Source of the DNA: Rhizobiaceae bacterium
GTDB taxonomy: Bacteria; Pseudomonadota; Alphaproteobacteria; Rhizobiales; Rhizobiaceae
DNA length: 64,000 nucleotides
NCBI GenBank assembly: GCA_017644105.1
Contig: JAEPMD010000010.1
Coordinates: 1 to 64,000, forward strand
Direction of reading: 5' to 3'
The position numbers were made by a program, and so were the translations under genes. Each line of letters begins with the position of its first letter. Position 1 is the stretch's first letter. The notes under the pieces were generated by a model. The model worked only from the letters and a program-made list of their open reading frames with translations. It ran no database searches and was not told the origin of the DNA. Of this stretch, positions 31,507 to 35,495 are shown one piece after another.

Positions 31507-32133
31507 ATGAAAGTTATTCTACTCGAACGCGTTGCGAAACTTGGCTATATGGGCGAAGAAGTCAGCGTTAAAGACGGTTACGCACGTAACTTCCTATTGC
31601 CAGAAGGCAAAGCACTCCGTGCAAATGCTGCAAACCGCGCACGTTTTGAAGCTGAAAAAGAAGCACTTGAAGCACGCAACAAAGAGCGCATGTCTTCAGC
31701 TGAAGAAATTGGCGCAGCATTGGGCGGCAAAAGCTTCATCGTTATCCGCTCTGCTGGTGAAACTGGTCAGCTTTATGGCTCAGTGGCATCTCGCGATGTG
31801 GTCTCAATCTTGGAAGAAAACGGCTTTAAAGTTGCACGTAGCCAGGTTGATCTAAACACACCAATTAAAACACTCGGTATCCACTCTGTTGCTCTTAACC
31901 TTCACGCAGACGTTCAGGTTTCTGTTGAGTTCAACATTGCACGTACACCTGACGAAGCTGAGCTACAAGCACAAGGCGTTGACATGTCATCTGCAGATGC
32001 GATGTTCGAGCTTGAAGATCAGGCCGAAGCTGAAGCTGCTGCTGAAGAAGCAGCTGCCGAGGAAGAAGGTTCTGAAGAGGAAGCTTCTGCAGACGCTGAA
32101 ACAAGCGAAGAAGCTTCTGACGAAGACGCATAA
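31507..32133 (+). CDS. rplI: 50S ribosomal protein L9
   Basis: L9 binds 23S rRNA through its N-terminal domain and stretches across the ribosome surface. The 208-residue protein has the signature [19 protein letters not shown] and [16 protein letters not shown] in residues 1-40, the long connecting helix (about 41-75) and the C-terminal domain (about 80-150). A further tail of about 45 residues is built almost only from Ala, Glu, Asp and Ser. That acidic tail is common in Rhizobiales. The last three codons, the stop and the terminator recur 3.3 kb downstream (see the repeat entries). Confidence 0.98.
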
Positions 32134-32190
32134 GTCTTTTATAGAACTAAATTTCGAAGCCCCGCGTGAGATCATCATGCGGGGCTTTTT
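32122..32190 (+). repeat. Direct repeat copy 1: rplI tail and terminator
   Basis: A 69-base segment starting with the last three rplI codons (GAAGACGCA) and stop, running through the terminator T-tract. It matches 35427-35495 at 64 of 69 positions without gaps. Two of the five differences are compensating changes in the terminator stem. Confidence 0.95.
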
Positions 32191-32192
32191 TT
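32157..32192 (+). terminator. Terminator of the rpsF-rplI operon
   Basis: AAGCCCCGC (32157-32165) pairs with GCGGGGCTT (32179-32187) around a 13-base loop, followed by a run of seven T. This is a strong rho-independent terminator 25 bases after the rplI stop. Confidence 0.95.
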
Positions 32193-32569
32193 GTTGAATG
32201 TCAGCTCAAGGTAACCATTCAATCTGAGTACGTTGGACCAATAAAATTTTACGTCCGAGCTTTGAGTTGTACTTACAAATAATTTCTAATTTGGCTGAGC
32301 CAGCCTGATCTAAAAAGCAAGAGCAAGAAAAGCGCTTTTAAAGCTGTGATTCGAGCGCTGAAATATTGAGTGGAAATTAAACGCGAAAGTTTACCTCTTC
32401 AAGCGCAACAACTCTCTTAAATTGCATATAATATCTATACACAATCCAAGATATAAATTTTGCAGTAAATACTGAGTATTATACAATATATTACAATTAT
32501 TATTTAATACAAAATAAGTATTTCGAATCAATTATTAAATATATTCGAACAAGAAGAGGGAAGAATTCG
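32191..32569. other. AT-rich region between rplI and the solute-binding protein gene
   Basis: 379 bases without a supported gene. From about 32420 on the sequence is very AT-rich (runs such as TATTATACAATATATTAC), richer than most gaps in the window. It must hold the promoter of the binding protein/chemoreceptor pair and lies just inside the left direct repeat, consistent with inserted DNA. Confidence 0.45.
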
Positions 32570-33502
32570 ATGAAGAAACTTAGTTGTATTTTGTTGAGCG
32601 GAATCGCTCTTATTTCACTTAACAACCTTGCCAATGCGACAGAGATTGGTGTTGCTTGGTTAGGTAAGTCATCCATGGCAGATCGAGTACTTGCAGGGGT
32701 ACAAGAAACGTTAACCGACAAGTTTCCAGATGCGAAACTGGAAATAAAAAGTGCCCTTGATACAAAGGAAGAACTACACGCAGCAGTGAAAGGTTTTGAG
32801 ACGTCTAAAGACGGCATTATCGTGTTGCGCTCAAATGGATCCGCTTATCTATCAGCTTATCAGCCATCAGTGCCAACCTTCATTGGTGGTGGCAACAACC
32901 CGGTTGCACTTGGTGTCATGAAAAATGCCGACGCACCTGAAGGTAATATTACAGGCGTGACTTACGCAATTCCACTTGAGGACCCGCTTGCAAGTTTTAT
33001 GGCAATCGGCGGTGTAAGTTCTTTCTTACTGCTAAGTCAGGCAAATTATGCATCATCTCCAATGGATTGGGCTGCCACTAAAGCCGGTTGTGATGCGTTA
33101 GGCATCACATGTGCGCAAGCACTTGTCGGCAGCGTTGAAGAACTTTCAGAAGTGATCGGTGCCAACAAAGATAAATATGATGCATTTATCCTGGGCAACC
33201 AGTCGTTGATCTTTAGCAATGCAAAAGCTGCAACCGCTGCAGCCGGTCAAAAGCCTGTCTTTTCATATGCCGAAAAGGGTGTGGAAGAAGGCGCGTTAGC
33301 TGGCATTGTTGCCGATGACAATAAGCTTGGACGTATGCTGGGTGACTCCATCGTTTCAGTTTTGGGCGAAAAGAAATCAATTTCGGAAGTTCCGGTTAAG
33401 GTGGATGAAGCGCCTCGCGTGATTATCAATTTTACCACTGTTGCAAGCCTGGGAATTGATGTTCCTGGCGACTTCTTAAACATCGCCGAAATTATCGAAT
33501 AA
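32570..33502 (+). CDS. Periplasmic solute-binding protein (ABC_sub_bind family, TrpX-like)
   Basis: 310-residue secreted binding protein. Signal peptide about 1-23 (cleavage after LANA). The mature part shows the two-lobe ABC_sub_bind layout: [18 protein letters not shown] at the start, [14 protein letters not shown] and EGNITGVTY in lobe 1, and [17 protein letters not shown] with [15 protein letters not shown] near the end. There are no ABC permease or ATPase genes next to it; instead a chemoreceptor follows after 31 bases. I infer that it captures a ligand (possibly an amino acid or aromatic compound) and presents it to that receptor. AGAGGGA precedes the ATG. Confidence 0.85.
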
Positions 33503-33533
33503 CATCAGCTTATCGAGTTTAAGGGAGATTCCC

Positions 33534-35417
33534 ATGTTTAAATTACAACCCAAGCTAGGTTTTGTGTTAGCGGGAATTTCCACGCTCGCCATGATCTTGA
33601 CAGTTGTCGCAATAACGATTGTCAATCTTATCAACCAACAATCGATATTGAATCAAAATTTTGAGGCTAAAAGTCTTAAAACTAATGAAACGATTTCACA
33701 GCAGCTAGGTACTGCTGTGAAATTTAAGCAGGCGAAAGCAATCGAGGGTTTTGCTTTGGTACATTTTGAAGACCCCATATCGAATATTTTATCGATGAAA
33801 GTCTTCGATGCAGAATCAACAAATCTTGTGTCCGTTGGTGAACCAGATCATGCAGATTTAATTTCAAACCAGACCATCACTGATGCGACAGCGTCTAACG
33901 AGATGCAATTCGTTCATCCGAACGATCATGGTATTCAGGTCATCCACGGTATCAACTTTAAAAATTCAGACTCGCCCATCGGATATATCGTTACCCAATA
34001 TAGCGATGCTGCGGTCCATGCAGCGATCACCTCCCTCATCATAAAAAATCTTGTGCTAGGCGTGAGCATGATTGTCATTTTGTCGATCTTGATCATTTTT
34101 GCCTATTCTAAAATTATTTCTCGCCCACTCATCACCATCGAGGAGAATATGCGTATTTTGGCGAGTGGTGATATGGAAACAAAAAAAGATATCAAAAGCG
34201 AAATCATTGAGATCACAAATATGGCAGAGGCCGTGGACACGTTCCGTAAAGCTGCGATTGAAAAGAAAAGCTTAGAACGGCAAAGCGAAGAAAATCGTGT
34301 TTTGAGTGAGGAAGAGCGTCAACGCGCAGAACAGCTTAAAGCGATTGAGGCAGATAATTTAGCGAAAGCCATTCAGTCGCTTGGAGATGGTTTGTCTCTT
34401 CTTTCAGAAGGCGATTTGACTGTTAATATTCAGGCGCCATTTGAAGGTGAGCTTGATCGTTTGCGTCTTGATTTTAACACATCGATTGCCACACTTGCGA
34501 AAACGATGGCTGAAATTAACGGCGTATCAACCACACTCAAAGACAATTCTTTTGAAATTAGTAATGCCACAAATGAGTTGTCACAAAGAACAGAAAAGCA
34601 GGCAGCGTCACTTGAAGAGACTTCTGCCGCGCTTGATGAGATCACTGCGACGGTGCGCGAAACGTCTGAGCGCGCAAAAGAAGCTGCAAACAGCGCACGC
34701 GATGCTCGCAATGACACACAAAAATCCAGTGAAGTCGTATCCAATGCCGTGTCTGCTATGGAGGGTATTGAGAGAGCGTCTTCGGACATTACGAACATCA
34801 TAAATGTGATTGATGAGATTGCCTTCCAAACCAATTTACTTGCACTCAATGCCGGTGTTGAAGCTGCACGCGCCGGCGAAGCGGGTAAAGGTTTTGCCGT
34901 GGTGGCGCAAGAAGTTCGTGAACTTGCCCAACGGTCCGCAACAGCAGCTAAGGAGATCAAGGAGCTGATTAATAAGTCTGGTGCAGAAGTAAATAACGGC
35001 GTACAGCTCGTTAAAGAAACAGGCGCAGCTTTATCTAAAATTTCTGAACACGTTTCCAAGATCGATTCTCAAATTACCACGATATCTTCCGGTGCAAGTG
35101 AGCAGCTAACAGGAATTCAGGAAGTGAATGCTGCCGTTAGTTCCATGGATCACTCAACGCAACAAAACGCAGCAATGGTTGAAGAAAACACTGCCGTTAC
35201 GCGGATGATTGCTGAAGAGGTTAAATGCTTGGCCGGGCTTATTGCCACATTTGAAGTGGCAAAAGCAAACAAACAACATGCCGTCCCGAATGAACGAATG
35301 TCTGAGGAGGCAAGAACCATCTCATCATCAACTAAAATTCACGCGACAAGGAGCTTAAGATCTTTATCGTCAGCTGCCATTGCAACTGAACCAACGGCTG
35401 GTTGGGATGAGTTTTGA
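33534..35417 (+). CDS. Methyl-accepting chemotaxis protein with a CheR-type C-terminal pentapeptide
   Basis: 627-residue receptor. Helix 1 (about 10-33) and helix 2 (about 170-193) enclose a periplasmic domain of about 135 residues that I cannot assign. HAMP follows, then a Glu/Arg-rich linker with a second HAMP-like part ([12 protein letters not shown]), then the signalling tip [18 protein letters not shown]. After the hairpin comes a flexible tail of about 45 residues that ends in GWDEF. This fits the xWxxF pattern (NWETF in E. coli Tsr) that tethers CheR methyltransferase. The other two receptors in the window lack it. AAGGGAG precedes the start. It is coupled to the binding protein at 32570. 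Confidence 0.93.
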
Positions 35418-35426
35418 GGTCAAATA

Positions 35427-35495
35427 GAAGACGCATAAGTCTTTTGTAGAACTAAGTTTCGAAGCCCCGTGTGAGATGATCATACGGGGCTTTTT
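35427..35495 (+). repeat. Direct repeat copy 2: displaced rplI tail and terminator
   Basis: Copy of 32122-32190, ten bases after the chemoreceptor stop. It still reads GAAGACGCATAA, the rplI Glu-Asp-Ala-stop codons, but here it is in noncoding DNA. Differences from copy 1 are A to G (twice), C to T, C to G and G to A. Confidence 0.95.
35462..35495 (+). terminator. Terminator of the binding-protein/chemoreceptor unit
   Basis: AAGCCCCGT (35462-35470) pairs with ACGGGGCTT (35484-35492), then a T-run to 35495. The stem's outermost loop-side pair is T-A where the rplI terminator has C-G, so pairing is preserved by two matched changes. Confidence 0.92.

What the first reader, a model, noticed from the sequence alone, without database searches (positions are those of the whole stretch)
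32122..35495. The rplI 3' end and terminator are duplicated around a 3.2-kb block, with compensating stem changes
Seen: 32122-32190 and 35427-35495 match at 64 of 69 bases. Copy 2 keeps the last three rplI codons and stop in noncoding DNA. Two of the five differences lie on opposite sides of the terminator stem (C-G to T-A), so pairing was preserved by selection or copied from a relative. The enclosed block (AT-rich leader, binding protein, chemoreceptor) looks inserted, either by recombination at rplI with a related genome or with duplication of the target.
Basis: partly seen in the sequence, partly recalled or inferred. Interest (0 to 1): 0.65.

Follow-up and report, generated by a model that had tools for sequence, protein, structure and literature searches.

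The report
Duplicated rplI terminator beside inserted genes
A Rhizobiaceae bacterium carries 18 kb of extra genes just behind its ribosomal-protein gene rplI, and the first two of them (a binding protein and a chemotaxis receptor) end in a second, slightly changed copy of the rplI gene's tail and stop signal; this looks like an ordinary scar of gene acquisition.

Summary
The repeat is real: 32122-32190 and 35427-35495 match at 64/69, are the only two copies in the 3.93-Mb genome, and include the last three rplI codons, stop and terminator. Two of the five differences form a C-G to T-A stem compensation (about 4% by chance under random substitution). An empty site exists, but not the expected one: in congener G003, Hoeflea/Pseudohoeflea and G015, rplI is followed directly by a uracil-DNA glycosylase gene (udg). 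The right part was assembled in steps: a sulfatase gene is missing in close relative G001. The block is a PF04392 binding protein plus chemoreceptor, a pair also adjacent in all three other genomes found to carry the binding protein, at unrelated loci. Composition is native-like and no integrase lies on the contig. Best explanation: horizontal insertion of the pair behind rplI through recombination at the rplI 3' end, leaving a displaced terminator that now ends the new operon. Whether the recombination was homologous, homology-facilitated illegitimate or att-type is not resolved. Known kind of event, low interest.

The parts
31507..32133 (+). rplI (ribosomal protein L9), last gene of the operon with 29666-30091, 30103-30351 and DUF2232 30506-31492
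   Evidence: Pfam PF01281/PF03948; syntenic in G003 and 83 family loci
32122..32190 (+). Repeat copy 1: last three rplI codons, stop, intrinsic terminator (stem 32156-32188 with T run)
32191..32569 (+). AT-rich intergenic leader before the binding-protein gene
32570..33502 (+). Periplasmic substrate-binding protein (PF04392, ABC_sub_bind), no transporter genes beside it
   Evidence: Pfam E 6e-23; 47-53% homologues in G043, G463, G537
33534..35417 (+). Methyl-accepting chemotaxis protein (HAMP + MCPsignal), partner of the binding protein
   Evidence: Pfam; a binding protein-MCP pair in all four genomes with the binding protein
35427..35495 (+). Repeat copy 2: 64/69 identical; now sits as the terminator of the binding protein-MCP pair
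32134..50406 (.). 18.3-kb region of difference between rplI and udg: binding protein, MCP, amino-acid permease, Na/Ca exchanger, LysR regulator, glycosyltransferase/GtrA/YdjC/PMT genes, globin-like, sulfatase, PilZ
   Evidence: absent between rplI and udg in G003, Hoeflea and G015; gene contents
47828..49713 (-). Sulfatase-containing segment absent from close relative G001 (stepwise build-up of the region)
   Evidence: window 47133-47827 and 49714-50405 lie 43 bp apart in G001:C6
50407..51342 (+). Uracil-DNA glycosylase family gene (udg), the ancestral right neighbour of rplI
   Evidence: PF03167

Best explanation
The 3.3-kb block is a horizontally acquired two-gene sensory operon (binding protein + chemoreceptor) that was joined to the chromosome at the rplI 3' end, within a larger 18.3-kb region that has built up between rplI and udg. 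The joining used or copied the rplI tail and terminator. One copy still ends rplI; the other lies 3.3 kb downstream, where it now serves as the terminator of the acquired operon. The likeliest route is recombination with DNA of a related genome carrying the rplI 3' end: homologous pairing in or near rplI on one side, and an illegitimate or short-homology join on the other. Shown: the repeat, both terminator folds, the ancestral rplI-udg adjacency, the patchy distribution of the pair, the absence of an integrase. Inferred: single event, route, donor, and that copy 2 works as a terminator. The block itself probably serves chemotaxis towards a solute presented by the binding protein (inferred).
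For: Repeat exact, unique in genome. rplI-udg adjacency in G003 and in 8 of 9 Hoeflea/Pseudohoeflea/G015-type loci. No relative of the binding protein at E<=1e-20 in 393 other family genomes, but 47-53% homologues in three genomes of other families of the order, each followed by an MCP and each at a different locus: after trmD in G043, after rplS in G537, after a two-gene AzlC/AzlD-like cassette in G463. Both copies fold as strong terminators (z -6.1 and -6.8). Copy divergence of 7.2% (95% range 2.4-16%) is compatible with the 10.6% intergenic divergence between the window and congener G001, as expected for a scar of that age or a copy from such a relative. At the two compensating stem sites copy 1 has the G003 state and copy 2 the derived one (weak alignment). 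Precedents: homology-facilitated illegitimate recombination (PMC2884548; PMC3240628, abstract); 10-18% of small variable segments are flanked by direct repeats (PMC2884548).
Against: No genome with the exact empty site (rplI - one terminator - permease) and no donor with rplI followed by the pair was found; both sister MAGs lack rplI. The repeat does not bracket the whole 18.3-kb difference. Gene composition is native-like, so there is no compositional support for recent transfer. A 69-bp homology is short for efficient RecA recombination between diverged species.
Confidence: 0.55

Rival explanations
1. Att-type integration: the block is the remnant of an integrative element whose tyrosine recombinase targeted the rplI 3' end; copies 1 and 2 are attL and attR, with the element supplying the new rplI tail, and the integrase was lost or acted in trans.
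For: Streptococcal integrative conjugative elements with tyrosine integrases insert in the 3' ends of ribosomal protein genes (rplL, rpsI, rpmG) and leave direct repeats of 12-54 bp (PMC4701971). The repeat here starts in codons and restores the gene, and the second copy lies exactly at the other edge of the block.
Against: No integrase or remnant on the window's contig; the eight PF00589 matches of the genome are all on other contigs. No mobility genes among the Pfam hits of the 18 kb. None of about 80 related rplI loci shows a similar duplication. The related pairs in G043, G463 and G537 have no comparable flanking repeats. 69 bp with five differences is longer than the quoted range.
Confidence: 0.12
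2. Two steps: a 69-bp tandem duplication of the rplI tail and terminator first (slippage or unequal crossing-over), then insertion of the pair between the two copies.
For: Copy 2 starts 10 nt after the MCP stop and copy 1 ends directly before the leader, so the pair sits exactly between the copies.
Against: Needs an insertion to hit the junction between two short copies by coincidence; no tandem copies seen in any of about 80 related rplI loci.
Confidence: 0.15
3. Multi-step history inside the island: the pair and the terminator copy came in together as part of a larger 18-kb replacement from a sister species in which the duplication already existed, so the duplication event is not visible at this locus at all.
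For: The extra DNA is 18.3 kb and stepwise (sulfatase absent in G001); native composition fits a congeneric source.
Against: No such sister found; it moves rather than explains the duplication.
Confidence: 0.13
4. Assembly artefact: a misjoin at the repeat.
For: The genome is a 93-contig draft.
Against: The copies differ at five sites, two of them a compensated pair; the join is inside a 118-kb contig; misjoins would be expected to give identical copies.
Confidence: 0.02

Closest known systems
Variable segments flanked by direct repeats / homology-facilitated illegitimate recombination (PMC2884548, PMC3240628)
   Same: Extra DNA in one lineage bounded by direct copies of a resident sequence; no mobility genes; one side with homology to the chromosome.
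   Different: Repeat is longer (69 bp) than most of those described (under 30 bp) and is a whole gene tail plus terminator that appears to be reused by the acquired operon.
Integrative elements targeting 3' ends of ribosomal protein genes (rplL, rpsI, rpmG in streptococci; PMC4701971)
   Same: Direct repeat containing a ribosomal gene's 3' codons, gene left intact.
   Different: No integrase, no conjugation or mobility genes, longer and diverged repeat.
Binding protein-activated chemoreceptors (reviewed in PMC9602780)
   Same: Binding-protein gene next to a chemoreceptor gene, found as a pair in four genomes.
   Different: Binding protein is of family PF04392; the pair's ligand and physical interaction are untested; the MCP sensor regions differ (4HB_MCP_1 in G537 and, weakly, G043; none recognised here and in G463).

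Membership tests
Intrinsic (rho-independent) terminator | G+C-rich hairpin followed by a T run, downstream of the gene | tested here: met
   Both copies: 14-bp stem, 5-nt loop, T run
Insertion flanked by direct repeats | Empty site in relatives with a single copy of the repeat | tested here: inconclusive
   rplI-udg adjacency without the block in G003 and Hoeflea-type genomes, but their rplI terminators are too diverged to count as the single copy, and the right neighbour of copy 2 in the window is not udg
Integrative element with att sites | Site-specific recombinase gene inside the element | tested here: not met
   No recombinase family among the island proteins; no PF00589 match on contig C1
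Integrative element with att sites | Same target site used by elements in other genomes | tested here: not met
   About 80 related rplI loci: no duplicated rplI tail; the other insertion found (L078) lacks repeats
Transposon | Transposase and terminal inverted repeats with short target duplication | tested here: not met
   No transposase family in Pfam hits; no inverted repeats at the block ends
Binding protein-dependent chemoreceptor module | Binding protein and MCP encoded together | tested here: met
   Window, G043, G463, G537
Binding protein-dependent chemoreceptor module | Ligand-loaded binding protein activates the receptor | not testable with these tools
   Needs binding and chemotaxis assays

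The most novel reading that the evidence does not exclude
The binding protein-chemoreceptor pair is a small mobile sensory cassette that repeatedly lands directly behind translation-apparatus genes (rplI here, rplS in G537, trmD in G043) and in this genome captured the rplI terminator as its own, by an integrase-free mechanism.
Probability: 0.07. Interest if true: 0.5.

Novelty: new member of a known kind. Interest (0 to 1): 0.22.

Why it matters
It is a readable example of how an acquired operon can arrive with, or borrow, a ready-made terminator, so that neighbouring expression is insulated from the start. Two copies of common origin, one with a compensated stem change, also give a small natural experiment on terminator evolution. 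Otherwise it is ordinary genome plasticity.

Tried and rejected
Searched the repeat in 394 family genomes: only generic GC-stem terminator matches elsewhere. Exact pattern in viral contigs: none. Binding protein in plasmids: none; DNA of the block in plasmids: listed hits only to the MCP signalling domain. Rfam on 31400-36000: none. tRNA as insertion site: no tRNA in the window. A third repeat copy at the right end of the 18-kb region: none. Compositional foreignness of the block: rejected, GC 0.458/0.439 and GC3 0.394/0.408 against window means 0.471 and 0.442. Sister MAGs G001 and G002 as tie-breakers: their contigs end at window 29563 on the left, and at 47133 (G001) and about 51385 (G002) on the right, so neither holds rplI. 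Flanking repeats at the related pairs: only short, weak matches.

Full report
Observation. In the whole 3.93-Mb genome of the window only these two copies exist, and among the self-hits of an 84-kb stretch it is the only noncoding direct repeat of this strength. Copy 1 consists of the last three rplI codons, the stop codon and the terminator. Copy 2 begins 10 nt after the stop codon of the chemoreceptor gene and keeps GAA GAC GCA TAA in noncoding DNA. Both fold into an upstream 6-7-bp hairpin and a 14-bp terminator stem (z -6.1 and -6.8). The C/T and G/A differences at repeat positions 44 and 58 pair with each other. In simulations that place five substitutions at random, a compensated pair arises in about 4% of cases, and with no broken pair in about 1%. 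This mildly favours constraint or copying from a relative and proves neither.

What surrounds it. In G003, the only other genome of the genus with a complete rplI locus, rplI is followed at once by a uracil-DNA glycosylase gene, then the epimerase, MFS, EamA and further genes that in the window begin at 50407. The same rplI-udg adjacency holds in Hoeflea, Pseudohoeflea and G015; 9 loci hold both genes, 8 of them adjacent, and Hoeflea sp. YIM 152468 carries another, unrelated two-gene insertion without repeats. So the adjacency is ancestral (inferred from this distribution) and the window's lineage gained 18.3 kb (32134-50406). The repeat bounds only the left 3.3 kb of it. The right part was assembled stepwise: in the close relative G001 (about 88% nucleotide identity) the sequences 47133-47827 and 49714-50405 are only 43 bp apart, so the sulfatase segment is missing. 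The contigs of G001 and G002 break outside rplI, so they cannot show the repeat locus.

What the block is. It encodes a PF04392 periplasmic binding protein without transporter genes, then a methyl-accepting chemotaxis protein. Among 394 genomes of the family no other has a relative of this binding protein at E<=1e-20. In a sample of 397 genomes of the order three have one (47-53% identity), all in other families. In each of these the next gene is an MCP, with detectable similarity only in the signalling domain. The pair stands after trmD in G043, after rplS in G537, and after a two-gene AzlC/AzlD-like cassette in G463 (the last named from its sequence, not tested by a family search). It is a conserved two-gene unit with a patchy distribution and changing neighbours, as expected for a transferred module. 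Codon use and GC of the two genes are native-like, so the transfer is old, or the source was compositionally similar.

How the repeat most likely arose. The simplest account is a single insertion of the pair behind rplI by recombination that used the rplI 3' end as the seam, leaving a copy on each side. The divergence of the copies (7.2%, range 2.4-16%) is no different from that of intergenic DNA between this genome and G001 (10.6%). This fits either a duplication of roughly that age or a copy received from such a relative. In a weak alignment with the G003 rplI terminator, copy 1 keeps the G003 state at the compensated pair and copy 2 is derived. Homology-facilitated illegitimate recombination and direct repeats at variable segments are well described (PMC2884548; PMC3240628, abstract). 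Transformation can also create duplications through alternative pairing of repeats (PMC3784515).

Rivals. Streptococcal integrative elements do use the 3' ends of rplL, rpsI and rpmG and leave 12-54-bp repeats (PMC4701971), so an att-type origin is the best-defined alternative. It fails on its defining feature: no recombinase among the proteins of the 18 kb and none on the contig. It also fails on recurrence of the site in about 80 related loci. A tandem duplication followed by insertion between the copies needs a coincidence. Misassembly is unlikely because the copies differ.

Verdict. The event belongs to a known kind.

Noticed in passing
32570-35417; L148:4486-7176; L234:4220-7193; L235:9937-12654: PF04392 binding protein plus chemoreceptor pair found in four families of the order; in three of four it stands directly behind translation genes (rplI, trmD, rplS). 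Possibly a transferable chemotaxis module.
   Followed up: partly
47828-49713: Sulfatase gene segment present in the window but absent from close relative G001, where its flanks are 43 bp apart.
   Followed up: partly
45386-45706 (-) and 47490-47825 (+): Two small proteins of the same PHROG family (phrog_11195, unknown function) lie 2 kb apart in opposite orientation in the island.
   Followed up: no
35649-35759: A 36-codon ORF (MIHNAQAALKVLRL...) whose stop overlaps the ATG of the amino-acid permease (ATGA): a possible leader peptide or gene remnant.
   Followed up: no
29563: Contigs of two sister MAGs (G001:C67, G002:C431) end at exactly the same base just upstream of rpsF, probably an assembly effect at a conserved ribosomal operon.
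   Followed up: no
L078:7606-9400: Hoeflea sp. YIM 152468 has an unrelated two-gene insertion at the same rplI-udg interval, without flanking repeats.
   Followed up: partly
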